Below are positions 2,823-18,263 of a stretch of 64,000 nucleotides of DNA, piece after piece. The translations under genes and the position numbers were made by a program. The notes below the pieces were generated by a model, which was not told the DNA's origin, ran no database searches, and saw only the letters and a program-made list of their open reading frames with translations. The stretch lies in the NCBI RefSeq assembly GCF_012027615.1, contig NZ_SNUT01000001.1:1-64000 (forward strand), in the 5' to 3' direction. Position 1 is the first letter of the stretch; every line of letters begins with the position of its first letter. This stretch comes from Thermococcus sp. 21S7 (GTDB lineage Archaea; Methanobacteriota_B; Thermococci; Thermococcales; Thermococcaceae).

Positions 2823-3542
2823 GTGAGGATAAGCTCCATCGAGGAGTTCCCAAGGGAGCTGGTGCCAGTTGAGATTCCTCCCCACACAACGATGCTGAGG
2901 GGCATAGGCTGGGACTCGAACGTCTACCTCGTGAGGGACGGGGGAGATGCCCTCGTAGTGGACACCGGCACCGGCGTTAACTGGCACGTCTACGCCGAGA
3001 TCTGGGAGAGGGAAGGCCTCCTCAAGGGCGTTGAGAGGGTCACGATATTCAACACCCACGAGCACTTCGACCACGTGGGCGGGAACATGGCCCTGGCGGA
3101 CTGGCTGAGGAGAAAAGGATTGACCGTCCTTTTCGCCGCCCACGAAACCACGGCGAAAACACTGGAGAATGGAGACGACTACGTGATTCTGGCCTATTCT
3201 TACGGGAGGAGGTTCGAACCGCAGAGGGTTGATCTCCACCTGGGGGAGGGCGATGCGCTCAAAGTCGGCTCGCTGGAGCTTGAGCTGATCCACACTCCCG
3301 GCCACACGGCTGGAAGTTCGTGTCTCTACCTGGACGATGGAGAGACGAGAATAATGTTTACGGGGGATACGGTCTTCAACGGCACGGTTGGCAGGACGGA
3401 TTTGCCGACCGGAGACGGATGGAAGCTCCAGGAAAGCCTTGAAAGGCTCAGGGATTACGACGTTGACTTCGGCCTTCCTGGACACGGCTGGGTCATAAAG
3501 GAGTGGAGAGAAAACATCGACGAAATCCTGGGGTGGCTCTGA
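2823..3542 (+). CDS. Metallo-beta-lactamase fold hydrolase
   Basis: A 239-residue single-domain MBL-fold protein. The signature HxHxDH is present as H79, H81, D83 and H84, followed by the expected HTPGHTAGS (third metal His), FTGDTVF (bridging Asp) and a late LPGHG. These residues bind two metal ions and activate water for hydrolysis. The class includes glyoxalase II-like thioesterases, lactonases and persulfide dioxygenases; nothing visible picks one. I chose the GTG at 2823 because GGAGGTG lies six bases before it; an in-frame ATG at 2745 would add 26 residues of low-complexity sequence and has no ribosome binding site. The stop overlaps the start of the next gene (TGATG), so the two are translationally coupled. 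Confidence 0.85.
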   Translation: MRISSIEEFPRELVPVEIPPHTTMLRGIGWDSNVYLVRDGGDALVVDTGTGVNWHVYAEIWEREGLLKGVERVTIFNTHEHFDHVGGNMALADWLRRKGLTVLFAAHETTAKTLENGDDYVILAYSYGRRFEPQRVDLHLGEGDALKVGSLELELIHTPGHTAGSSCLYLDDGETRIMFTGDTVFNGTVGRTDLPTGDGWKLQESLERLRDYDVDFGLPGHGWVIKEWRENIDEILGWL

Positions 3543-3787
3543 TGCGGAAGGGTTCCGTGAAGGAGGTCCTGGCGAAGCTCAAGTACGACCCCAGGGAGGA
3601 CGAGGAGGATTACTACGTCATCATAGAGCACCGCGGTGCCTACGGCGATGTCAAGAAAATCCCCGTTGGGATGATAGATCTTGGTCACGGCTACTTCTTC
3701 GTCGGGGACGCCCAGATACCGTACCACCGCATTCTGAAGGTCGTCAGAAAAGATGGGAAGGTAATATGGGAGACCAGAAAGCTCTGA
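3542..3787 (+). CDS. DUF504 / UPF0248 small protein
   Basis: An 81-residue basic/acidic protein that matches the archaeal UPF0248 (DUF504) family in length and in its sequence order: an N-terminal KGSVKEVLAKLKYDP, a central IIEHRGAYGD, then IPYHRILKV near the end. The family is widespread in Euryarchaea; its biochemical role is unknown to me, with RNA-related roles only suspected from its gene neighbourhoods. The ATG at 3542 overlaps the TGA of the hydrolase gene. It ends one base before the stop of the convergent ferritin-like gene. Confidence 0.75.
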   Translation: MRKGSVKEVLAKLKYDPREDEEDYYVIIEHRGAYGDVKKIPVGMIDLGHGYFFVGDAQIPYHRILKVVRKDGKVIWETRKL

Positions 3788-4762
3788 TCAGGAGACCTCC
3801 CTGAGCTCCGAGGTGAGGAGCGCCCACTCACGGGAGCTGAACGCGTCTTTAACTGCCGTGGCCAGGATGTAGCCGTCGTAGAGAAGCGCGCAGTCCTTGA
3901 GGTAAAGCACGACGTCCATCATGCTCTTGAAGCCGAGTTCAAGGGCGAAGTAGCTGAGGTTCTGAAGGAAAACCGCACCCTTTCCGCCGCTTTCAGATGT
4001 CTTGCCCAGAAATCTGCAGAACTTTCTCTTAAGCAGTGGAATCTCGTCGGGATGTATTGAACCATCGACCTCGGTTCTGGTTATCCACACCACGCTGATC
4101 TTGGCGCCCTCCAGCATTTCGAGGAATTTCTCGGGCTTTTCCCGTATGGCCACGGACAGCTCGACGCCGCTCTCCAGGAGGTCTATGAAAAAATACTTTG
4201 CCTTCAGCTCATCGGTGAAGATGTATCCTCCAGGTTCGAGCTTTTCGGGGGTTATCTCCTTCTCCTTAAGGGCGATAATGAGCTCGTACATTTTCCTGAG
4301 TGAATTGTAGTGATCCTCCTCCATCGCGGCCAGGTTGAGCGCGAACGCCCTCGTGTCTTCATCCTTGGCAACCCTTGCCAGGAGTTCGTAGGTTTTCTTG
4401 GCGAACAGCTCGCTTTCCATACAGTATTCAAGGGCAGAGACGTAGTCGTCGACGCTCTCAAACTCGGGGTAGAAGGGGGCCACCTCCACGGGAGGAGCCT
4501 CAACCTTCATCGGTTCCTCGCCGGGGTACATCTTCTTGAAGAGTCCGTACAGCCAGTCGTGGTGTCCCTTGCTTTCCTCGCTCATCTTGATAAACAGCGC
4601 CTTGATGCTGGCCCTCTTGGCCTTCTCAGCAAGTTTGGCGTAGTACTTCGCCTCCTCTTCCTCGTTAAAGATGGCGTAGCTCAAAAGTTCCTTCGGAGGC
4701 TTATCCTTAAGCGCCTCCACTATCTCGTCCATACCGACGGTGGAATCCTCCTCGTTTTCCAT
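3788..4762 (-). CDS. Ferritin-like (rubrerythrin-type) protein fused to DUF835
   Basis: 324 residues. Residues about 25-170 form a ferritin-like four-helix region with two Glu/ExxH pairs (MSEESKGHH and MEEDHYNSL), the ligands of a di-iron site in rubrerythrins. These proteins reduce peroxide or store and sense iron and oxygen. Residues about 180-320 match the archaeal DUF835 domain: an opening GYIFTDELKAKY, a VVWITRTE strand, and a conserved-looking LYLKDCALLYDG near the end. DUF835 is common in Thermococcales regulatory proteins and resembles a degenerate KaiC/RecA fold. No rubredoxin-type iron site is present, so this is not a classical rubrerythrin. The combination suggests an oxygen or redox sensor, which is inference. 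The start has GGAGGG about nine bases upstream. It is divergent from the TatD gene. Confidence 0.75.
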   Translation of the reverse strand: MENEEDSTVGMDEIVEALKDKPPKELLSYAIFNEEEEAKYYAKLAEKAKRASIKALFIKMSEESKGHHDWLYGLFKKMYPGEEPMKVEAPPVEVAPFYPEFESVDDYVSALEYCMESELFAKKTYELLARVAKDEDTRAFALNLAAMEEDHYNSLRKMYELIIALKEKEITPEKLEPGGYIFTDELKAKYFFIDLLESGVELSVAIREKPEKFLEMLEGAKISVVWITRTEVDGSIHPDEIPLLKRKFCRFLGKTSESGGKGAVFLQNLSYFALELGFKSMMDVVLYLKDCALLYDGYILATAVKDAFSSREWALLTSELREVS

Positions 4763-6128: not shown

Positions 6129-9100
6129 ATGAAAAAGGGTACCCTCTTCCTAATCTACCTTTTAATTAGCTCTTACTTAAACGTGGGTTTCGTCGGCGTT
6201 TCTCATGTTGTCCAGGCTCAAGGGACGTACGTTTTTCAGGACGACTTCAACGATAACAGCCTCGATACGAGTAAATGGACGGAAGATGTTGTGGGGAGCG
6301 GAAACAGCTACACGGAGACAAACGGGGAGGCCCAGTTTGTCACCTTTGGACATCAGGGATTCGAAAACGGCCACGCATTTTTGCGGAGCTCGGTTTTTTC
6401 TGTGAGCAACTGGAGCAGCGTCACGTTTTCCGGGAGCTGGAAGTTCACCGATCCGGGAACGGCCGAGATGTGGTTCAGAATCTACGATGCCGACTCCGGA
6501 AAATATATCGGCGTGCGCTACATCAGCTGGCCGTCCGATAAGGTAACCTACGATAGGCCGGAAGGATCGATAACCGAGTACAGAACCATTCCCAGAGAGT
6601 ACGTGGCCTTCAGGGTGGTTCTCTATAAAGACCGCTTTGAGTACTGGGAAGGAGGAAACCTGGTAAAAACCATACCAACGGCAGGGATGGGGAACACCAC
6701 GAGCTTCCAGCTCGTCATAGGCGGCTGGGACTACTCGTCCCGTTACTCCCATATGTACTTTGACAACATAACCGCAGAATACGAGAGCGCGGCCCCACCA
6801 GGGGAGGGCATTGAAGTAACCATCATCTCGCCGGAGGAAAAGGTATACGACACCGCAACGATAGACCTGAACGTTACGGCCAACAAGCCGGTTGACGAGT
6901 GGCGATACTCCCTCAACGGCGGGAAGAACGTCACATTCGAGCCGAACACCACGATAACCGCCCAAAACGGAGAGAACCTCCTCGCGGTGTACGCCCTCGC
7001 CGGCGACGAGACAGGGATGGCCCGGGTGAACTTCTATGTGAACGCGAGTGAGAAAGACAAGACGCCGCCCGGGACCGTTAAAAACCTGGCCCACGAAGTT
7101 GGCTCGAACTACATCCACTGGACCTGGGACAACCCGGAGGACGAGGACTTCGAAACGGCGCTGATTTACGTGGACGGAAAATTCGAGGACGAGACGGACG
7201 AGGGCGAGTGGTGGCTCGACGAGCTTTCGCCAGGCGAAACTCACACGATTGGAATCCTCACGAGGGATTACTCAGGGAACGTTAACACCACGTGGGTAAA
7301 CGACACCGCAACGACGCTCACCCCCGCCGAAACGGTTTACGTAAACGAGAGCGGCTGGTGGTATGAGGACGGAAAACTCAACCCCAGTGAGACGCCGCTC
7401 CAGGACGGAATAGAGAACGCGGTCGAAGGTGGAACCGTCGTAGTCCTCGCGGGAACGTATCCTGAGAGCGCGGAGATAGACAAACCCCTCACCGTGGAAA
7501 CGAGCGAGAACGCCCGCGTCAGCGGCGACGGCTCCGAGTGGGCGAACGGAAGGAAGCCCATCTTCTACGTGGACTCCGACAACGTTACGCTGAGGGGATT
7601 CGTCATAGCCTCGTCGGTCTCGAACATCGGGGTCTTGGTGGACGGCGTCGAGAACTGTACCGTTGAAAACAACACGATTACGATAACCGAAACCGAGGAT
7701 AGCGAGCGCTACGGAATCTATCTCAGCTACGGCGGAAGCAACGTTGTGGGTAACAACGACGTGAGCGTTTCGGGCTTCCAGGGTGTCGGGATTTACGTCT
7801 ACGAGGAAGAGGGAGAAAGCTACGTCCACAACAACACCGTTGAGGTTATAGGGGACAGCGCCGACGGAATAGAGGTCTTCTACACCTCGGCACGGGTTTA
7901 CGATAACACCGTCTCGATAGACGGGGTAAGCGAGAACGCTGGTTATGCCCTCTACCTCTACCTCGCGGGGGATTCATTTGTGGACAACAACGAACTGACG
8001 ACCAACCTCTCCGAGACGAACGCCTGGGCAATAGCCGTCATCGGGGAGTTCAGGGGCTCGCTGAGCGGGAATCTGATAAACGGAATCCAGACCGAGATAG
8101 TCTGTCCCGAAAACTGTCTTGTGAGGGGCGTTTCTCCGGGGAACCGGCCGGCACCGCAGGAGGGCTACGGCGACGTTGGGGAGTACCTTGAGATAGACGC
8201 GGACAGCTGGCTCCATCTGGGGCTTTATTACGACGATTCGTCTCTTGATGGCCTCGTGGAGGACAGCCTTCAGATATGGCGCTTCAGCGAGGACTGGACG
8301 CTCGATGGAACGAGCGGGCACCACTTGGACACGAACAAGAACTTCGTCGAGGCCAACCTGACGCAGTTCAGCGTCTTCGCGCCGCTCGCTCAGGAGGAGA
8401 ACGACGTCACCCCGCCGGTTCTCACATTCGTTGAGCCAACGCCAAAGGACGGCTCCCTGATCAAGGACTCCAGAGTGGTGATAAACGTCACCTCGAACGA
8501 GAACCTTTCCATGGCGACCCTTGAGTTCGACGGGGCAAACCACACGATGCTCGGCTCGGGGAAGAACTGGCACTACCAGATGGACGTTGCGGATGGTGTT
8601 CACGCCTTCAAGGTTTACGGCCAAGACCTGGCAGGGAACAACGGAACGAGCGAGAGTAGGGGCTTTGAAGTTGACACGAAGGCCCCGGAGTATTCAAACG
8701 TCGGTCAGGATGCGGAAGGCCTCACGCCGGGCGGAGAGGTTCACGTTCACGCCTTCTGGAGCGACCCCCATCTGGGCTCGGCGAGGCTCGGGACAAACGC
8801 CACCAACGGCGCGGCCTGGGAGTGGGTAGACGAGACCTTCTTTGAGGGAAGCGAGGGCTGGAGCAACTTCACGATTTCAACGGATGGTCTTGAGCCGGGC
8901 CTCTACTGCTGGGAAATAGCCGGCGCGGACCGCCTCGGCCATGAAAACACAACGCCAATGGAGTGCTTTACCGTTTACGCGCCTCCGGAAATAGTCTCGT
9001 ACTCTCCCGAGAGCCCAGTCGAGAGCCACGTCGGCGATACCGTCGAATTCTCGGTAACCGCTGACCAGACCGTAAACGTCACCTGGTACCTCGACGGGGG

Positions 9101-12100
9101 CGTCGTGAAGACGGAGGAGAACGTTGAGACCTCCACCTACACGAACTCTGAAATAGGAGAAGGAGAACACAGCGTTAGGGCCGTCGTCGAGAACCCAAAC
9201 GGCTCGGTGAGTCAGTTCTGGGCGTGGTACGTCTACCCGAGACCGAGCCTCGCCGTGAGCTTCGTGGAGCCGACGCCCGAGAACGGGGCGATGCTCAACG
9301 TGAGGAGGGTCATCATCAACGTCAGCTCCTCGCTCGACCTCGACGATGCTGTCCTTGAGTGGAACGGCGTCAACGAGAGCATGAGCGGTTCGGGAAGAAG
9401 CTGGTGGGCGCTGAAGGAAAACCTCACGGACGGAACCTACACCTTCCGCGTTTACGGCTCGGCCGACGGGGTTAGCAACGCCACGGAAGAAAGAACGGTG
9501 GAGATAGACGCAACGGCCCCAGAGTTCATCGAGTACGGCCAGAATAGGGGCGCGGTGACCGCTGGCGGCGATGTTGAGGTCTTCGCGAGGTGGGGCGATG
9601 CCCACCTTGACGGGGCAGTTTTGGCCACGAACGCGACCTTCGTGGACGGGGCTTTCGTATGGAGCGAGGTGCCGCTCCAAATCGCCGAGGGCTGGAGCAA
9701 CGGGACGATAAGCACCGACGAAAACTTCGCCGGAAGGGTTTTCTGCTGGTACATCAGGGCGAACGACACCTTCGGGAACGAGAACGAGACGCCGGAGCTA
9801 TGCTTCAGGGTCATCGAGCCGCTGAGGATAGTTTCATTCTCGCCCGAGGCTGAGGAAATCACCCTCAGGGAAAACGAAACGACGGCATTTTCCATAGCGC
9901 TCAACCAGGTGGCAAACGTCACGTGGGCCGTCAACGGGACGATCGTTCTGGAGGAAGAGGGGAACGGCTCGACCTACACAAACTCCAGCCTCGTCATCGG
10001 CCTCTGGAACGTCAGCGTGAGGGCCAAGAACGGGAACGGCGTTGCGGAGCACTGGTGGCTGATGCGCGTGAGTCCGTCTGAAAACAAGCCCCCCGAAATC
10101 CGGTTCATTCCCCCGACACCGGAGAACGGCTCCCTCGTAGGTTCGTGTACCATGACCATCGCGGTGAACGCGAGCGAAGAGCTGGACAAAGCGGTTCTTG
10201 AGTTCGACGGAACCAACTTCACGATGGAGGGCTCGGGCAGCGTCTGGAGCCTCACCGGCAAACTCTGCTCCTCCGACGGAAAGCACTTCTTCAGGGTTTA
10301 CGGAACCGACCTCGGGAACAGCACCGGGGTGAGCGAGACCAGAGCCGTCGAGGTGGACTCAGCGCCGCCGGTCATCCGGTGGGTTCACGCCAACAACATG
10401 ACCCGCTCCGAGATAGGAATCTTCACCGCGGAGAGGCTCTCCAACGCGTCCTTTGAGATAAACGTTACCGACAAGCACCCGATGAGCTATCAGGTCTACC
10501 TCAACCCCGAGCCCGGCCATCTGGAGCTTCTGGCACGGAGAGGACGCTACAGAAGCGGCGTTCCGTTTGGGTTCCCAGTCAGAACCGACGATGTGAGAGC
10601 CGACGTTTACCGCGTGGTCGTCTACGATGCCGCCCTCAACCATGCGGAGGTTATACTCCTTGTCCGCGTCGTGGACACGAGGGCACCGGGCCCGGTTGAG
10701 AACCTTGACGTCAGCACGAACAGCTCTGGGTTCACTGCCACCTGGAGGAACCCAAGTAACGACGACTTCGAGAGGGTCGAGCTGTACCTGGATCCCAAGG
10801 AGAAGGAGAACAAAAAGGGGGAGAGGGTAATCGACTGGAACTCCTCCCGCGTCGCCAACCTGAGCGGTGAACCCGGCCAGGAAATGAGGTTCTCGATGAA
10901 CCTTGAACATGGGAGACACATCCTGTACGCGAGAACCTTCGACAGGTACGGAAACGGCGGAACTCCGGTGGAGGTTAGATTCACGGTACCCCTGCCCACG
11001 TTCGTGCTCTACTATGTCGAACCAACGCCGGGGAACGGAACGGTCCTTCCGGGCGAAGTCCAAGAGGTTACCGTGGCGGTGGCTTCGAGCGTCCAGCTGA
11101 AGGACTGTACCCTAAGCCTGAACGGAAAGAACGTCCCCATGAACGTTACCGGAACCATCTGTCGGACGAGGCTCAACATCATTCCCGGCGCCAAATACAA
11201 CTTCTCGGTTTCTGCGGTGGACGTTTACTGGCGCAGAAGGGAAACGGCGGTCAGAACGTTCTCGGTGGAGAGGATGTGTTTTGTTGAGGGCGACAGGCTC
11301 AAACTGAACCCGCCGGACGAGGCGGACTCCCTCCGCTTCCAGGTAAACTTCACGTTCGTAACTAACAGCCTCGCAAAGACATACACCTACCGCGCCTCGG
11401 TCATGGGAGTGAGCGTCGAGAATGCCTTTGAGCCCGACATCGAGGTCGTGGACTTTAAGGATGTTAAGAACGACATCGAAGGACCATTCGGAGAGAGGGT
11501 AAAAAGGTTCTACGTTGTCAAGGGCCATTTCGTCGCGGACCTCTGGGAAATCCAAGACGCGGTTCTGAAGGGAGTGGAAGAAGGAAAGCCGGTGAGTCTG
11601 GAGATAACGGCCGTGGATGACTGCGGAAAACAGATTAAAGCGACGGGAGAGCTAACTGTCTGCAAAAATTCGGAGAAACCCGACCTCGTACTAAACATGG
11701 AAGACTTCTATTACCGGGACGAGGACGTCATGATGTCAGCCGAAGTGGCCAACGGAGTTCAAATTAGAGAATTCCACTACTCCATCAACGGCGGTTCATG
11801 GGTGGAGTTCAACGGAACCGCAAACCTGACGGGCCTGCTGAGGCCGGGTGAGAACTTCGTATCGGTCAGGGCGGCAAGTGAATGCGGACTGCGGACGGGA
11901 AAGACCGTAAAAGTCTTCCTTGGACCTCCAAGCGAGGGGGACTGGATTGTAAACGACAGCGAGGAGTGCCTCGGGCACGAGTTCAGCGTCAACGGAGGGC
12001 TTGTCATACAGGAAACCGGGAACCTGACACTGCGGGGCTGCAAAGTCCACCTCAACGGCGGCGTTCAGCTGGACGGTGCGCTGGGAGTCCTCGACGGCTC

Positions 12101-15100
12101 GCTGATAGGGAACGCGAGTGAGTTCTCCGGGGAGTTCGGAAAGATGGACGTGAGGGACTCGACCGTCGAGAACATTGGTGGGGGCACATTCGCCGAGGGA
12201 ACCGCGGTCGTCAGAAACTCCGTACTTTCCGGCGAGTTCACCTTCGACTTCACGGAGCTTGACGTTGATTCCAGCAGTATCGACGGAGGCATTAAGGTGT
12301 TCGGAACCGTTGGTATCACCAACACCACGGTGACGGGCGGGAGCGGAATCACCCTCGCCGGATTTAACGAGGGCACCATCGAGAACGTCACGGTTCGGGA
12401 CTGCGCCTACGGAATCCACCTCATAAACGACAACGGAAAGGACATGACCTTCAGGAACATCCTCGTTGAGAACCCGCGCGAGGCGGGGCTTTTCATGGAG
12501 CTCTCCCCAGGTTACTGGTTTAGAGAGGGGGTTTTCACAAACCTGACTGTGATCGGGGGAGAGGTGATAATAAACGGCGGGAGCGCGACCTTCGACCGCT
12601 CAAGGATAGAGCCGGGAGACGGCTACGCCGTGCTGGCGGATGCCGCCGGAAGGAGACTGACGTTTAAGAACTCCAGCGTGGGTGGAAAGGGAATCCTAGC
12701 CAGAAAGCTCGCGATCCTCTCGCTCCAGGACAGCAACCTAACGGGGGACATCACGGGAGAGGTTGGATGGATTAAGGTTCAGGTGAGTCATGGGGCAAGG
12801 GCGTCCCTCAGAGAGGGCGCGGCAGAGAATATACACGGCAGTGTCTGGGGTGTCCTGTCCGTTGTTGACTACAAGCTCAATGGTGGAGATGCGACGGTGT
12901 TCGGGGGCGGAACGCTCCGGGTGGAGGATGAAGACGGAATCCCCGCAACAGACCCCTCGGACGGGGACGCAAGCGTTCTGAGGAACATGAGGATCGATGA
13001 GATGTCCGTGGAGAAGGAGGCCCACATCGTCGTCCTCAACGCGAGGCTTGAGAACACAACCATCGTAGCGGATTCCAAGTGGTTCCTGATACGCGGGAGC
13101 GTGGTCAACGGCAGGCTCAGCCTCAACACGGGCGACGAATCCCTGAGCGGGGGCCTTACTGAAACGCCGGCATTCGGCTCGACGACGGACTGGTACTACA
13201 CCACCGAACCGCTTCCCGAAAACTGGTACTACTCCCAGGACACGACTGGCATGACCGAAAGCGATGCCCCGTTCGTTGCCTACTCCTCGACGGTACCCAG
13301 CGGGTGGGGCTGGGGAACGATCCTCGGAGAGTTTGCCACCCTCTATCTTAAGAAAACCTTCACCGTGGAGGAGCTTCCAACTGAGGCGGTTCTCATCTAC
13401 TCCGCCGTAGGGACGGTGGAAATATACGTGAACGGGCGGAAGGTCGTCGATGATCAGAGGGTCGGCGGGATGTCGTTCAGTGGAATGAGGCTCCACGGGG
13501 TGCCGCACTCCAAGAGCGCTGACGTTGCCCCGTACCTCGTGCCAGGCAGGAACCTGATAACGGTTTGCGTAGAGCTTCCATCAACCTACCCCTACCAGTA
13601 TCTCGGGGCCTTCAGGGCTTCCCTAACCCTAAAAAGCGGCCTCTCGGCGATAACCGACAGCGTTTTGAATGGAGAGGTCAGCGGGTACGGCACGAGGGCA
13701 CTCCTCGCCAGGGACGAGGTTCACGCCAGGCTGAGCTTCGGCTACGTCTCATGGGTCACCATATCTGACTCAAGGGTTCACGGCACGGTGGATGGGGTTG
13801 GTAGGATCAGACTCCTCAACAGCGAGCTGATAGGCAACGGAAGCGGAACGGGGCTTAAGATGACCGACTACGGGGTAATATCGGTCGAAAACTCCAGGAT
13901 ACACGGCTTCGGGTACGGGATAATGGGAGCGAGTAAGGTAAACGTGACGGAAAGTGAAATCTACGACAACGACGTCGGAATCCGTCTGCGGAGCGCGAAG
14001 ATTCTCGTCAAGGACTCGTACGTCAGGGACAACGGCGTTGGCATAGAGGTCTGCAACATCACAGGCAGGATAGAGAACAACGTGATTTACGGAAACGGCG
14101 TCGGGATAGCAGTGAACGCCGGCGAGAACATCTACATGAGGGTCAACAGGCTCTCCATGACTCACGATACTGTGGTTGGGAACTCGCTTGGAATTCGCTT
14201 CGATGGAAACTACAGCTCCGGCTACGTGAGCGTCACCGAGAGTCTGATACAGAACAACGACCTCGGCCTGCTCCTCAACTCTACGCTGACGCCGGAGGTG
14301 CGCTTGGACTCGCTGGTGAACTACAGGGACGTGCTGATAGAGAGTCGCTTCTCCCCGACACTCCGGGACATAGACTGGGGAGGGACGGAACCGGTAATGG
14401 TGCTCAGCTATCCCGAGGGGTTCATGTACACGTACGACGGTGAAGTCAGGGATGACTACGACATCCTCGCAAGGAACTGGAAGCCGGTAATCCTCCTCAA
14501 CTCCACGGAAATCGGGGAGGACTGGGGCTCCAGCCTGCTCTCGGCATCACTGAGGGTGTACCCCCTCGAAAACGGCTCAGTCAAGGGCGTTGTGACCCTC
14601 GCAGGGAGGGCCGTATCGAGGGACGGCCTCTCGAAGGTCGTCTATTCTCTGGAGCGGAAAGGACGGGTGGAGACCCTCACGGAGGTGAACGTCGGCTCTG
14701 AAACCTACGACAACTACGTGCTCCTCGACACACAGGGGATGAACCTGACAGGCCAGGGGGTGCTGAGGTTTACGGCGGTCGATTCCACAGGCAAAACCCT
14801 CACTGGCGCCGTGAGCGTGTACTTCGCCAACGCGGAGATCGTGATAGAGAACGTGAGCGTCGATAACGCCACCAACATCTACAGCCTCTACCAGGTTAGC
14901 TACGAGTCCAGTGATACGAGTTCCTGGGACACGAGCCTAAACAGGGGCAGATACGCCAACGTCACCGTCGTGCTGAGGAACACCGGGCTGATAAACGGAA
15001 GTGCGAGGGTTGTGCTCGACCTGCCGGAGTACGTCGAGAGACACACTGGAAGGATCGAGGGCCTCGCCTACCTGCCGCCCAACGGCTCGCTGGCCCTGGA

Positions 15101-18100
15101 GTTCCCGGTGCCGATAGTGGAGTACGACATGGGGACCCTGACGTGGGACGTTCTGCCCGATGAACTCCCGGACGTGGGTAGATTCACGGCGTGGGTCAGG
15201 CTCTACGACGCGGACAACGTGCTGAGGGAAGAGATACCGGTTAAGGTGGGCTTCACCCTCGGGCCGGTTTTCGAAATAACCTACTACACCATGTACCCGT
15301 ACTCCAGGGCGTACTGCGAGAGCTACCCGAACTTCTGCCACAACAGCCCGCCCTACGACGGGGACGGCGACGATACGGTTGAGGCAGCAGAGAGTCACCA
15401 CTTCGACCTGGGCTATGAGAACGTCGGGGACGAAGACGCAAACGTAACCAAGATAATGTTCAAAGAAAACATTCCCGAGAGGGATAAGGGAACAAAGGCC
15501 CTCAAGAGCCACAGTACGGAGATATACCCAGACCCGCTATACCTCACCCACCGCCGTTCTTATCCCCTCTGTACCGCCCTAATTGATGTCAGCCAAGGCT
15601 CCTTCAACCTGCTCGGAAGCGCCCCGGTTGGGGTTGGGAAGATGGGAATGGACCTCTTCATAGGATGGTGGCTGGATCTGCCGCCCGAGGTGATACCACC
15701 AGTCAACTTCACCGGACAGTACCTCACCAACGCCTGGTTCTTCTACACCGGCGAGGATGGGAGGAGCTACTACACCCCAAGCCTGAACTACAAAAAACAG
15801 CCTGTGAAAGCTCTGAACAAGACGTTCGTGCCCCAGACGGTGAAAATGAATCCAATAGACCTCAACGTGATGGCAGTCAAGGATGGAAGGACCTATGTCA
15901 CCATGCACAACACCAACGGGAACGTGTACTACGACTACTTCGTCCAGGGCTCCTACGGGCCCGGCGAGGGCTTCCGGTGGTACCACTTCATGCCGCCGGA
16001 CTTCACCATGAAGGCGATAGCGGATAACAGCCTCCAGCCCAGCAAGACGATACCCCACTACAGAATCATGGTCGGTTTCAGGCCCTCGATGACGGGGAAC
16101 CTGCTCAAGTGGTTCGCGTCCACGCTGAACGCCGTTCTCGGAGTGCTCGGCATTGACGTTCCGGCGGAGACCCTCACGCTCGCCCTCGCGCACACACTGA
16201 TCAAGGTGGTGAACCTGGCCGAGACCATAGACTTCCAGACGGATTCCGAGAGCTTCGAGTCGATAAACGCCAGCGCCCGCAGGAGCGAGGTAGACGCTGC
16301 CCTTATAGCCAGCAACGAGACGGTGATAGCGCCGGTGGGCATAGACACCTTCGCCAGGCTGGAGGAGAACTACGGCATGGACAGGGAGTACTACGTCAAC
16401 CTGGAGAACCTGGACGAACTGCCCGTGTCACAGCAGGCTCAGGTGGCCGGGAAGTTCGCAAAGGCGATAGCGCTGGACGAGGACCTTCAGATACTCCTCC
16501 TGGAGACGATAATAGAGGTAAGCGACATGGACCTCTACTACAACCTTGCCAAAATAGCGAAGGGCGTGTACAGCGAAAACCCAGAAGAGATAACCGGCGC
16601 CGGCGGAGCAATAGGCATGGCCGCGCTGAAGAAGGCTTTGAAGGAGGCCGCCAAGGAAGCAGTGCTTGAGGAAGTGAAGAAGACGAGCTACTACAAGAGC
16701 CTGACCCCGGAGGAGCAGAAAGCATACAAGGACAAGGTCGGCAAGGGCATCGGGGCGGTGATAGCGTACTCCTTTGACATGTCCCAGTTCGTGACCTACG
16801 TAGTCCTCGCGCCCATCCCGGGAATCAAAACGATATACGTTCTAGACCCGCCGGGCAACTTCACCGTGCACCCTGAAGAATCCAACGTGACGGTGCTGGG
16901 AGGAGGGGCCGTTGGAGTCGGCAGGGGAAGCGTCTCGCTCTCCCTGGGAGATGTGGACGTTTACCGGGCCGCCTACGTCGCCTCGACCGAGAGCCTGCCG
17001 ATAGGTGCACTCTTCAACGGAACCCTGCTCTGGATGAGGACCAGTGTGGAAGGCAGGAGAAACGGCGAGATGGTCGGGAACGTGACGATAACCATGAGGC
17101 CAACTGCCGAGAGTGCAGGCCACCTCCTGGCGGCGTTCCGGGATGATAGCATGGTGGAGACACTCCTCGGGGGCTACTTCGCCGAGAAACCACTCTGGAA
17201 CGTTTCCATGGACGGGGGCACGGTCATCATCACCGCCTCCGGAATCCTGAACGCCCAGCCGTACGAGGAGGAAACAAGCATCGAGGTCTTCACGAACGCG
17301 AACGTAACCCTCGCCAACGTAACCCGCGTCGGCCGCTACGGAAACGTCATCGAGATAATGCCCTCCTTCGTCCCCCTAAACTTAACCGAATTCAACGTAA
17401 CCGGAAACGCTTCGGTGGGGGTTTCGGAGGACGTCATAACCGTCGTCAGGGGCAGGGTTGGAACCCCGGAAATCGATGCGGCGCCGCTGAAGCTCAATCG
17501 GGGAGAGCGGATAACCCTAACCGTCCCCGCGGAATGCGCCGTTGAATGGAGGTTCGACGGAGAAACCGGACGGGGCATCTTCGTCCCAACAGAGGGGGCC
17601 GAACCCGGGAACCACACGCTCGAAGTCACCTGCCTCATAGGAAACCTCAGCGCGTCGAGGAACTTCACCGTTGAGATAGCCCGGCCACAGGCGGTCGTGA
17701 GAAAGACCTCCGGGGCCCTCGTGGAGGGGTCGGGATTCGTCGTGCTTGAGTTCGGAACCGACCTCCAGATGATTTCCCTCGTCGCTCCGGAGGAGCTGAA
17801 GGGTGTCGTGGCGGTGTCGCAGAATCCAGGCGGGATGGTGGATGGCTACCTCGTGTACTCGACCTTCAACGTCACCCATCCCGGGAACTGGAGCGTGGAG
17901 AACGTCACCCTGTACTTCAGGGTGCCGAGGAAGTGGTTCGGGGAGAACAACGTCAGCCCCAAGGAACTGGTTCTCCTCCGCCGCGAGGGCGGCTGGGCAG
18001 AGTACCGGCCGGTTCTGGAGTACGGGGACGGTGAATACCTCCACTACCACGCCAGTGTCCCAGCCCTCTCGGTCTTCGCCGTTGCGGGGAAGGTCAAGGC

Positions 18101-18263
18101 GGGAGAGCAGGGGACCGAAGAAACGGAAACGATGTCTGAAAAGCCCCCGGAGACCCAAAGCACAACCCCCTCCGGAGGCGAAAGCGGAAGCAGCGCCGTT
18201 TATTACCTTGCCGGCGCCCTGCTGCTTCTGCTGGTGGCTATCTACCTCTACAGAAGGCGCTGA
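6129..18263 (+). CDS. Giant secreted, membrane-anchored multidomain surface protein
   Basis: About 4,044 residues. A signal peptide (about 30 residues, ending in VQAQ) is followed by a LamG-like beta-sandwich (about 6225-6780), Ig-like and Fn3 segments (6810-7310), a first right-handed parallel beta-helix (7330-8110), and four Ig-like modules beginning with the motif EPTPxNG (near 8430, 9265, 10110 and 11015; the third is PPTPENG). A second long beta-helix follows (11940-14330), split by a jelly-roll carbohydrate-binding-like domain (about 13170-13630). Then come a CARDB-like segment (14850-15270), an unexpected helical island (16130-16800), a PGF-pre-PGF-like domain (17680-18090), a Thr/Ser-rich linker and a C-terminal membrane helix with an RRR stop (18195-18260). 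N-glycosylation sequons are abundant. It probably projects from the S-layer for adhesion, polysaccharide binding or self/non-self contact. ATG 6129 is chosen for its ribosome binding site; an upstream in-frame TTG lacks one. Confidence 0.9.
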   Translation: MKKGTLFLIYLLISSYLNVGFVGVSHVVQAQGTYVFQDDFNDNSLDTSKWTEDVVGSGNSYTETNGEAQFVTFGHQGFENGHAFLRSSVFSVSNWSSVTFSGSWKFTDPGTAEMWFRIYDADSGKYIGVRYISWPSDKVTYDRPEGSITEYRTIPREYVAFRVVLYKDRFEYWEGGNLVKTIPTAGMGNTTSFQLVIGGWDYSSRYSHMYFDNITAEYESAAPPGEGIEVTIISPEEKVYDTATIDLNVTANKPVDEWRYSLNGGKNVTFEPNTTITAQNGENLLAVYALAGDETGMARVNFYVNASEKDKTPPGTVKNLAHEVGSNYIHWTWDNPEDEDFETALIYVDGKFEDETDEGEWWLDELSPGETHTIGILTRDYSGNVNTTWVNDTATTLTPAETVYVNESGWWYEDGKLNPSETPLQDGIENAVEGGTVVVLAGTYPESAEIDKPLTVETSENARVSGDGSEWANGRKPIFYVDSDNVTLRGFVIASSVSNIGVLVDGVENCTVENNTITITETEDSERYGIYLSYGGSNVVGNNDVSVSGFQGVGIYVYEEEGESYVHNNTVEVIGDSADGIEVFYTSARVYDNTVSIDGVSENAGYALYLYLAGDSFVDNNELTTNLSETNAWAIAVIGEFRGSLSGNLINGIQTEIVCPENCLVRGVSPGNRPAPQEGYGDVGEYLEIDADSWLHLGLYYDDSSLDGLVEDSLQIWRFSEDWTLDGTSGHHLDTNKNFVEANLTQFSVFAPLAQEENDVTPPVLTFVEPTPKDGSLIKDSRVVINVTSNENLSMATLEFDGANHTMLGSGKNWHYQMDVADGVHAFKVYGQDLAGNNGTSESRGFEVDTKAPEYSNVGQDAEGLTPGGEVHVHAFWSDPHLGSARLGTNATNGAAWEWVDETFFEGSEGWSNFTISTDGLEPGLYCWEIAGADRLGHENTTPMECFTVYAPPEIVSYSPESPVESHVGDTVEFSVTADQTVNVTWYLDGGVVKTEENVETSTYTNSEIGEGEHSVRAVVENPNGSVSQFWAWYVYPRPSLAVSFVEPTPENGAMLNVRRVIINVSSSLDLDDAVLEWNGVNESMSGSGRSWWALKENLTDGTYTFRVYGSADGVSNATEERTVEIDATAPEFIEYGQNRGAVTAGGDVEVFARWGDAHLDGAVLATNATFVDGAFVWSEVPLQIAEGWSNGTISTDENFAGRVFCWYIRANDTFGNENETPELCFRVIEPLRIVSFSPEAEEITLRENETTAFSIALNQVANVTWAVNGTIVLEEEGNGSTYTNSSLVIGLWNVSVRAKNGNGVAEHWWLMRVSPSENKPPEIRFIPPTPENGSLVGSCTMTIAVNASEELDKAVLEFDGTNFTMEGSGSVWSLTGKLCSSDGKHFFRVYGTDLGNSTGVSETRAVEVDSAPPVIRWVHANNMTRSEIGIFTAERLSNASFEINVTDKHPMSYQVYLNPEPGHLELLARRGRYRSGVPFGFPVRTDDVRADVYRVVVYDAALNHAEVILLVRVVDTRAPGPVENLDVSTNSSGFTATWRNPSNDDFERVELYLDPKEKENKKGERVIDWNSSRVANLSGEPGQEMRFSMNLEHGRHILYARTFDRYGNGGTPVEVRFTVPLPTFVLYYVEPTPGNGTVLPGEVQEVTVAVASSVQLKDCTLSLNGKNVPMNVTGTICRTRLNIIPGAKYNFSVSAVDVYWRRRETAVRTFSVERMCFVEGDRLKLNPPDEADSLRFQVNFTFVTNSLAKTYTYRASVMGVSVENAFEPDIEVVDFKDVKNDIEGPFGERVKRFYVVKGHFVADLWEIQDAVLKGVEEGKPVSLEITAVDDCGKQIKATGELTVCKNSEKPDLVLNMEDFYYRDEDVMMSAEVANGVQIREFHYSINGGSWVEFNGTANLTGLLRPGENFVSVRAASECGLRTGKTVKVFLGPPSEGDWIVNDSEECLGHEFSVNGGLVIQETGNLTLRGCKVHLNGGVQLDGALGVLDGSLIGNASEFSGEFGKMDVRDSTVENIGGGTFAEGTAVVRNSVLSGEFTFDFTELDVDSSSIDGGIKVFGTVGITNTTVTGGSGITLAGFNEGTIENVTVRDCAYGIHLINDNGKDMTFRNILVENPREAGLFMELSPGYWFREGVFTNLTVIGGEVIINGGSATFDRSRIEPGDGYAVLADAAGRRLTFKNSSVGGKGILARKLAILSLQDSNLTGDITGEVGWIKVQVSHGARASLREGAAENIHGSVWGVLSVVDYKLNGGDATVFGGGTLRVEDEDGIPATDPSDGDASVLRNMRIDEMSVEKEAHIVVLNARLENTTIVADSKWFLIRGSVVNGRLSLNTGDESLSGGLTETPAFGSTTDWYYTTEPLPENWYYSQDTTGMTESDAPFVAYSSTVPSGWGWGTILGEFATLYLKKTFTVEELPTEAVLIYSAVGTVEIYVNGRKVVDDQRVGGMSFSGMRLHGVPHSKSADVAPYLVPGRNLITVCVELPSTYPYQYLGAFRASLTLKSGLSAITDSVLNGEVSGYGTRALLARDEVHARLSFGYVSWVTISDSRVHGTVDGVGRIRLLNSELIGNGSGTGLKMTDYGVISVENSRIHGFGYGIMGASKVNVTESEIYDNDVGIRLRSAKILVKDSYVRDNGVGIEVCNITGRIENNVIYGNGVGIAVNAGENIYMRVNRLSMTHDTVVGNSLGIRFDGNYSSGYVSVTESLIQNNDLGLLLNSTLTPEVRLDSLVNYRDVLIESRFSPTLRDIDWGGTEPVMVLSYPEGFMYTYDGEVRDDYDILARNWKPVILLNSTEIGEDWGSSLLSASLRVYPLENGSVKGVVTLAGRAVSRDGLSKVVYSLERKGRVETLTEVNVGSETYDNYVLLDTQGMNLTGQGVLRFTAVDSTGKTLTGAVSVYFANAEIVIENVSVDNATNIYSLYQVSYESSDTSSWDTSLNRGRYANVTVVLRNTGLINGSARVVLDLPEYVERHTGRIEGLAYLPPNGSLALEFPVPIVEYDMGTLTWDVLPDELPDVGRFTAWVRLYDADNVLREEIPVKVGFTLGPVFEITYYTMYPYSRAYCESYPNFCHNSPPYDGDGDDTVEAAESHHFDLGYENVGDEDANVTKIMFKENIPERDKGTKALKSHSTEIYPDPLYLTHRRSYPLCTALIDVSQGSFNLLGSAPVGVGKMGMDLFIGWWLDLPPEVIPPVNFTGQYLTNAWFFYTGEDGRSYYTPSLNYKKQPVKALNKTFVPQTVKMNPIDLNVMAVKDGRTYVTMHNTNGNVYYDYFVQGSYGPGEGFRWYHFMPPDFTMKAIADNSLQPSKTIPHYRIMVGFRPSMTGNLLKWFASTLNAVLGVLGIDVPAETLTLALAHTLIKVVNLAETIDFQTDSESFESINASARRSEVDAALIASNETVIAPVGIDTFARLEENYGMDREYYVNLENLDELPVSQQAQVAGKFAKAIALDEDLQILLLETIIEVSDMDLYYNLAKIAKGVYSENPEEITGAGGAIGMAALKKALKEAAKEAVLEEVKKTSYYKSLTPEEQKAYKDKVGKGIGAVIAYSFDMSQFVTYVVLAPIPGIKTIYVLDPPGNFTVHPEESNVTVLGGGAVGVGRGSVSLSLGDVDVYRAAYVASTESLPIGALFNGTLLWMRTSVEGRRNGEMVGNVTITMRPTAESAGHLLAAFRDDSMVETLLGGYFAEKPLWNVSMDGGTVIITASGILNAQPYEEETSIEVFTNANVTLANVTRVGRYGNVIEIMPSFVPLNLTEFNVTGNASVGVSEDVITVVRGRVGTPEIDAAPLKLNRGERITLTVPAECAVEWRFDGETGRGIFVPTEGAEPGNHTLEVTCLIGNLSASRNFTVEIARPQAVVRKTSGALVEGSGFVVLEFGTDLQMISLVAPEELKGVVAVSQNPGGMVDGYLVYSTFNVTHPGNWSVENVTLYFRVPRKWFGENNVSPKELVLLRREGGWAEYRPVLEYGDGEYLHYHASVPALSVFAVAGKVKAGEQGTEETETMSEKPPETQSTTPSGGESGSSAVYYLAGALLLLLVAIYLYRRR

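What the first reader, a model, noticed from the sequence alone, without database searches (positions are those of the whole stretch)
6129..18263. Giant surface protein with an inserted jelly-roll and a helical island
Within a nearly all-beta extracellular protein there is a carbohydrate-binding-like domain splitting the second beta-helix (about 13170-13630) and a helical segment of about 220 residues (16130-16800) with a KKALKEAAKEAVLEEVKK run. The helical part is unusual outside a cell and may be a folding unit, an adhesin tip, a toxin-like module or a cleaved product.
Basis: seen in the sequence. Interest (0 to 1): 0.6.

Follow-up and report, generated by a model that had tools for sequence, protein, structure and literature searches.

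The report
Giant mosaic surface protein of Thermococcus
A heat-loving archaeon carries one huge gene for a membrane-anchored surface stalk built of sugar-binding-type and beta-helix domains plus a buried helical domain, and close relatives carry very different versions of its membrane-side two-thirds, which looks like swapping between species.

Summary
ORF 6129-18263 (4044 aa) is a secreted, C-terminally anchored, almost all-beta protein. A jelly-roll with the fold of the GH2 sugar-binding domain interrupts the second beta-helix (about 13125-13610). A helical island lies at residues 3321-3558 (16089-16802).

The suggested readings of the island (tip, toxin, cleaved product) are not supported. 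It lies on the membrane side, between conserved beta domains. It is present in all 16 copies aligned and occurs nowhere else in 115 genomes of the phylum. It has no sequence or usable fold match, and no immunity-type gene stands beside it.

Context adds more. The gene is present or absent at one fixed site (TatD-98aa ORF-DHPS). Its Ig array varies by about 90-aa units. Two close species share 92-100% of the stalk but only 18-57% of everything after about residue 1320, island included, so deep allele classes have been exchanged. A Micrarchaeota genome (1 of 301) holds a remote homologue that is colinear through the island.

Best reading: a modular glycan-binding adhesin or recognition stalk, with the island as a membrane-proximal structural or assembly unit. 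Function is inferred, not shown.

The parts
6129..18263 (+). Giant surface protein ORF, 4044 aa
   Evidence: GGAGGTG upstream of the ATG is visible in the DNA printed
6129..6218 (+). Signal-peptide-like N-terminus (residues 1-30)
   Evidence: hydrophobic peak at residue 6; read by eye
6225..6782 (+). LamG/ConA-like head domain (residues 33-218); name by eye, no Pfam or NCBIfam hit
   Evidence: shared with stand-alone neighbouring genes in relatives; no profile hit
7398..8006 (+). First beta-helix, NosD-like (residues 424-626)
   Evidence: NosD Pfam and NCBIfam matches
8391..10088 (+). Ig-like array (about residues 755-1320); copy number varies between relatives by about 90 aa or 276 aa
   Evidence: Big_13, BiPBP_C; insertions of 90n and about 276 aa; repeated hits of query 727-826
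10026..10118 (+). Approximate switch point: downstream of here relatives fall into deep allele classes
12144..13124 (+). Second beta-helix, first half (residues 2006-2332)
   Evidence: AlphaFold2 model; VIA-align Z 25.3 to 7akv, rmsd 2.4, 290 aligned, over the two halves together
13125..13610 (+). Inserted block with jelly-roll core (2389-2489), fold of the GH2 sugar-binding domain
13611..14282 (+). Second beta-helix, second half (residues 2495-2718)
   Evidence: Beta_helix Pfam 2542-2685; model
15357..15392 (+). DGDGD acidic loop (residues 3077-3088), probable calcium site, invariant in 16 of 16 copies and kept in the Micrarchaeota homologue
   Evidence: calcium role inferred
16089..16802 (+). 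Helical island (residues 3321-3558)
16629..16682 (+). KKALKEAAKEAVLEEVKK run inside the island; not conserved in the divergent class
17853..18089 (+). PGF-pre-PGF domain (residues 3909-3987)
   Evidence: TIGR04213, 38.9 bits against cutoff 28
18192..18248 (+). C-terminal transmembrane anchor followed by YRRR (residues 4022-4040)
   Evidence: Kyte-Doolittle peak 2.19

Best explanation
A giant membrane-anchored surface stalk that works as a modular glycan-binding adhesin or recognition protein. Shown by sequence or model: secretion signal, C-terminal anchor, two beta-helices, an Ig array of variable length, a GH2-type jelly-roll nested in the second helix, a conserved helical island, exchange of the C-terminal two-thirds as deep allele classes, and gain or loss of the whole gene at one site. 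Inferred: the C-terminus holds the protein in the membrane, the Ig array sets how far the N-terminal lectin-like head reaches beyond the S-layer, the jelly-roll and beta-helix bind sugar chains of neighbours or substrate, and the helical island is a membrane-proximal folding or assembly unit (for example packing of stalks side by side) rather than an effector.
For: Architecture and anchors. Jelly-roll and beta-helix folds. Island kept in all 16 copies and confined to this family: 17 of 115 phylum genomes match the island-only profile at E below 1e-98; one further hit has E 0.17. Island covered colinearly in a Micrarchaeota homologue, profile positions 24-423 on one contig and 443-645 on another. 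Few N-glycosylation sequons in the island (0.82 per 100 aa against 2.55 elsewhere), as expected of a packed surface. Allele exchange. Empty sites. Variable Ig copy number.
Against: No ligand, expression or localisation data. GH2_N is below Pfam's cutoff, and the GH2 domain is a structural part of enzymes, not a proven lectin. The LamG-like head has no profile hit, and three relatives (L035, L039, L042) lack most of it, so it cannot be essential. The island model is low confidence and says nothing about assembly. Some beta-helices are enzymes, so an enzymatic role is not excluded.
Confidence: 0.45

Rival explanations
1. Polysaccharide capture or degradation: the beta-helices and GH2-type domain hold or cut a polysaccharide used as food, the rest being scaffold.
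For: Fold matches include AlgG (4ozy, Z 24.1), GH110, GH87, polygalacturonases and depolymerases; GH2 sugar-binding fold.
Against: Beta-helix fold matches are very common; no catalytic domain reaches a cutoff; the strongest VIA matches include non-enzymes (Vag8 and pertactin).
Confidence: 0.2
2. Self/non-self or kin recognition (allorecognition): the swapped C-terminal alleles define recognition types, as proposed for VARTIG in the same order.
For: Close species with near-identical stalks carry different deep alleles; patchy presence at one site; a published precedent for inter-species recombination of a surface Ig protein in Thermococcales (PMC8416519, abstract and named sections read).
Against: The variable part is the membrane-side two-thirds, not the tip; the number of classes seen is small (two main ones plus intermediates L039 and L040); no partner gene co-varies (looked at seven loci only).
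Confidence: 0.2
3. Virus or vesicle receptor under escape selection: alleles are exchanged because viruses bind this protein.
For: Presence/absence polymorphism and allele replacement.
Against: Nothing here links it to a virus; PADLOC has no hit.
Confidence: 0.1
4. The helical island is a toxin-like or cleaved effector module.
For: It differs in composition from the rest of the protein.
Against: Internal, followed by a conserved beta region and anchor; aligned in 16 of 16 copies; no toxin or immunity match.
Confidence: 0.03

Closest known systems
VARTIG large protein (arCOG07710), Makarova et al. 2021, PMC8416519
   Same: Thermococcales surface Ig protein, patchy, C-terminal region diversified by recombination between species
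   Different: About 950 aa in the described example, five Ig domains, C-terminal D[ND]NxxxG[GD] motif, operon of small variable genes; here 4000-4700 aa, two beta-helices, GH2-type jelly-roll, helical island, no such motif, no operon, the exchanged block is about 2700 aa, fixed site between TatD/98-aa ORF and DHPS
Giant membrane-anchored proteins of nanohaloarchaea ('SPEARE'), PMC10266531 (passages read)
   Same: Giant anchored archaeal surface proteins with long Ig-like arrays; LamG-domain proteins in the same organisms
   Different: 8,880-9,409 aa with a VirB4/TraG-like ATPase; no ATPase hit here
Pertactin / Vag8 / AlgG-type right-handed beta-helices
   Same: Fold of residues 2006-2718 (Z 22.8-25.3, rmsd 2.4-2.6, 264-290 aligned)
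   Different: Not autotransporters or epimerases; here the helix is split by a GH2-type domain
GH2 sugar-binding domain (PF02837)
   Same: Jelly-roll fold
   Different: Below Pfam cutoff, no GH2 catalytic barrel, nested in a beta-helix

Membership tests
GH2 sugar-binding domain PF02837 | Pfam gathering score 28 bits | tested here: not met
   13.3 bits and 16.0 bits
GH2 sugar-binding domain PF02837 | Jelly-roll fold of the GH2 N-terminal domain | tested here: met
   46 of 50 listed Foldseek rows are GH2-type enzymes, prob 1.00
GH2 enzymes | Catalytic TIM barrel | tested here: not met
   No such Pfam or NCBIfam match in the protein
NosD / right-handed beta-helix | Pfam Beta_helix and NosD above cutoff | tested here: met
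   85.2 and 59 bits
PGF-pre-PGF domain proteins (TIGR04213) | Curated cutoff 28 bits | tested here: met
   38.9 bits
VARTIG arCOG07710 | C-terminal D[ND]NxxxG[GD] motif | tested here: not met
   C-terminus read ends LLLLLVAIYLYRRR; motif definition from PMC8416519
VARTIG arCOG07710 | First gene of an operon of small variable membrane-protein genes | tested here: not met
   Downstream neighbour is a convergent DHPS-like gene 5 nt away; housekeeping genes or one LamG paralogue in relatives
Polymorphic toxin system | Exchangeable C-terminal toxin domain with a neighbouring immunity gene | tested here: not met
   C-terminus is an anchor; no toxin match; no co-varying small gene in the seven loci checked
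Thioester-domain (alpha2-macroglobulin/complement) proteins | Cysteine-glutamine thioester motif in the helical domain | tested here: not met
   No cysteine between residues 3148 and 3803; the C3 rows have rmsd above 29 and are not usable
SPEARE-type giant proteins | VirB4/TraG-like ATPase domain | tested here: not met
   No ATPase match
CGP-CTERM (companion LamG genes in relatives) | TIGR04288 cutoff 21 bits | tested here: not met
   18.9 and 17.4 bits; CGPG motif visible
Known helical fold for the island | Structural match of residues 3321-3558 | tested here: inconclusive
   Model confidence too low; VIA rows cover only the preceding beta domain

The most novel reading that the evidence does not exclude
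A giant allorecognition-type surface receptor: species with the same outer stalk carry deeply different 2,700-residue membrane-side alleles, exchanged between species at one chromosomal site, with a family-specific helical domain near the membrane as the part that assembles or signals; and a DPANN archaeon (Micrarchaeota) has acquired its own version, perhaps to dock on a Thermococcus-like host.
Probability: 0.1. Interest if true: 0.85.

Novelty: new variant of a known kind. Interest (0 to 1): 0.5.

Why it matters
Surface proteins of Thermococcales are mostly uncharacterised. This family gives a clean natural experiment: a single 12-14 kb gene present or absent at one site, with stalk length, head and membrane-side alleles varying separately, in organisms of which some are genetically tractable. 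The remote homologue in one Micrarchaeota genome offers a concrete candidate for contact between a DPANN archaeon and other archaea.

Tried and rejected
Searches that gave nothing: PDB sequences with the whole protein, with the island and its flanks and with the island profile; PHROGs and PADLOC; a genome-contig scan with the window's island alone (32 stretches matched a pattern, none confirmed). The three PDB rows for the jelly-roll profile (designed helical repeats, no stretch passing) are judged artefacts. Fold comparison of the island model gave complement C3-like rows at rmsd above 29 and VIA Z at most 7.4 on the beta part only, so nothing is claimed about its fold; absence of a match is not evidence of a new fold.

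Considered and dropped: thioester domain (no cysteine); polymorphic toxin (no toxin, no immunity gene); VARTIG membership (motif, size and locus differ). A sequence match for the jelly-roll in the Micrarchaeota protein was not significant (domain E 0.29); only its position fits.

Against my reading: the LamG-like head is missing in L035, L039 and L042; two of 15 relatives (L035, L040) have the gene split in two frames; the Micrarchaeota protein lacks the first beta-helix region by alignment and a PGF-pre-PGF match; its contig's leucyl-tRNA synthetase was compared only within Micrarchaeota, not with Thermococcus. The trees are quick searches without bootstrap; L035, L040 and L043 were left out of the N-terminal tree and L044 and L047 out of the DHPS tree; L042, L043 and L048 had no DHPS hit in the stretches held and so are not in the DHPS tree either. 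Papers: titles and abstracts from search listings; PMC8416519 abstract, introduction and part of the methods, most of the results (two of three parts) and discussion; PMC10266531, PMC9793634 and PMC12175726 passages only. In the searches I saw no paper describing this family.

Full report
What is there. The window's ORF 6129-18263 encodes 4044 residues with a hydrophobic signal-like start and a C-terminal hydrophobic segment followed by YRRR. Profiles place a NosD-type beta-helix at residues 424-626, Ig-like domains from about 800, a second beta-helix with matches at 2542-2685, and a PGF-pre-PGF domain at 3909-3987. The genome is held as 48 contigs. Its genus is shared with G067, whose contig has the same number and length (168,591 bases) as the record of locus L050, titled 'Thermococcus sp.'.

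Jelly-roll. The model of residues 1985-2840, made from four sequences, has mean pLDDT 70.5. Beta-helix strands run to about residue 2332 and resume at about 2495; between them lies a block with a beta-sandwich core at about 2389-2489. Foldseek lists 50 rows: 46 are beta-glucuronidases, beta-galactosidases and similar GH2-type enzymes and 4 are beta-helix proteins. Foldseek does not give the aligned range; that the GH2 rows fall on the insert is inferred from the Pfam GH2_N stretch at model residues 421-497 (below cutoff) and the alignment lengths. The beta-helix gives VIA Z 25.3 to Vag8, 24.1 to AlgG and 22.8 to pertactin. The block 2330-2510 is present in all 16 copies with 35 invariant columns, among them several aromatic residues.

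Helical island. The model of residues 3010-3720 is poor overall (pLDDT 44, pTM 0.35) but draws helices at 3321-3558, with 57-81 confidence at about 3350-3459. A propensity scan that uses no alignment finds its best 240-aa window overlapping the island in 15 of 16 homologues, in five of them only partly. Sequons are three times rarer there than elsewhere in the window's protein. An island-only profile finds 17 of 115 genomes at E below 1e-98, one match each, and one further hit at E 0.17 that I take as chance. So the island belongs to this protein family and is not seen in other proteins of the phylum. No fold can be assigned.

Distribution. The region with the island matches 17 of 94 family genomes; the region with the jelly-roll also 17 of 94, 16 of them the same. 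Of 15 relatives taken, 12 have one uninterrupted frame of 4057-4712 codons, two (L035, L040) are split in two frames, and one (L043) runs off its contig. The N-terminal 1270 residues match 29 of 94 genomes, but that count includes single Ig or head domains in other proteins and fragments in incomplete genomes.

Locus. In relatives whose flanks are held, the TatD-family gene and a 98-aa ORF lie upstream, or the DHPS-like gene downstream, or both; in L043 neither was found in the stretch held. In some members of the divergent class another housekeeping gene follows directly (DapA-like in L042, L043, L044 and L048; TrpB-like in L047; names by eye). Of 30 DHPS loci examined, 20 come from genomes without the giant gene in the searches above; in 16 of those 20 the TatD/98-aa pair lies within the 1.5 kb held beside DHPS, and in 11 of the 20 within 300 bases. 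So the gene is a single-gene presence/absence polymorphism at one site.

Companion gene. In L036, L038, L045 and L046 directly downstream, and in L047 and L048 directly upstream, a gene of about 290-340 codons encodes a signal peptide, one domain homologous to the giant's head, a Ser/Thr-rich linker and a CGPG C-terminus. The CGP-CTERM scores of the two tested are just under the curated cutoff. Genome G037 has such a gene beside DHPS but no giant. The window has no room for one: the convergent gene ends 5 nt past the giant's stop.

Mosaic structure. L037 and L046 are sisters in the DHPS tree (SH-aLRT 97) and in the stalk tree (100), but fall on opposite sides of the deepest split of the C-terminal tree. 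In 60-residue windows they are 92-100% identical in all 18 windows from L037 residue 248 to 1327, 65% in the next, and 18-57% in all 42 windows after it; the head windows 67-187 are only 45-57%. At DNA level a 3973-bp block aligns at 92.0%, nothing over 150 bp aligns across the following C-terminal region except a 414-bp stretch near the gene's end, and DHPS aligns at 93.0% over 1516 bp. L039 and L045 show the same pattern at lower identity. I read this as exchange of the membrane-side two-thirds, island included, between lineages. The Ig array varies by 90n residues (90 to 450) at residue 1324 and about 276 at residue 1245.

Micrarchaeota homologue. A contig titled Candidatus Micrarchaeota (L052, G+C 0.40 against 0.54 in the window) carries a 2434-aa frame, cut by the contig end, that aligns from the head onward (38-42% identity in the first 200 residues, mostly 16-31% in the C-terminal two-thirds). 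The island-region profile matches it over positions 24-423 and a second contig of the same genome over 443-645, where the protein goes on to a hydrophobic C-terminus. It is the only hit among 301 genomes of that phylum. The neighbouring leucyl-tRNA synthetase (named by eye) has its best match elsewhere in the phylum at 50% (60 of 60 sampled genomes match), which fits the binning but does not prove it.

Mechanism. Since the anchor is C-terminal, the island sits on the membrane side and the head at the far end; this excludes 'adhesin tip' unless the protein folds back. The most economical reading is an adhesin or recognition stalk whose sugar-binding-type domains contact glycans and whose helical island is structural. 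The exchange of alleles, and the published example of a different recombining Ig surface protein in the same order (PMC8416519), make a recognition role a serious rival.

Verdict. Observation confirmed; interpretation partly supported; a new variant of the known kind 'giant archaeal surface protein'.

Noticed in passing
L036, L038, L045, L046 (downstream of the giant gene) and L047, L048 (upstream): Small stand-alone gene with the giant's head domain and a CGPG C-terminus next to the giant gene; the window lacks it.
   Followed up: partly
L052 4487-11788 and L079 1225-2412: A Micrarchaeota genome encodes a remote homologue of the giant protein, split over two contigs.
   Followed up: partly
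L035 2733-15985 and L040 1722-16024: The giant gene is split in two overlapping frames in two relatives; frameshift or sequencing error not distinguished.
   Followed up: no
L080-L109: Eleven of 20 DHPS loci without the giant gene have the TatD/98-aa ORF pair within 300 bases, an empty site.
   Followed up: yes
G016:C15, G028:C1, G024:C1: Frames of 1112-1588 aa with tandem Ig-like repeats 40-50% identical to the giant's array, possibly another surface protein family.
   Followed up: no
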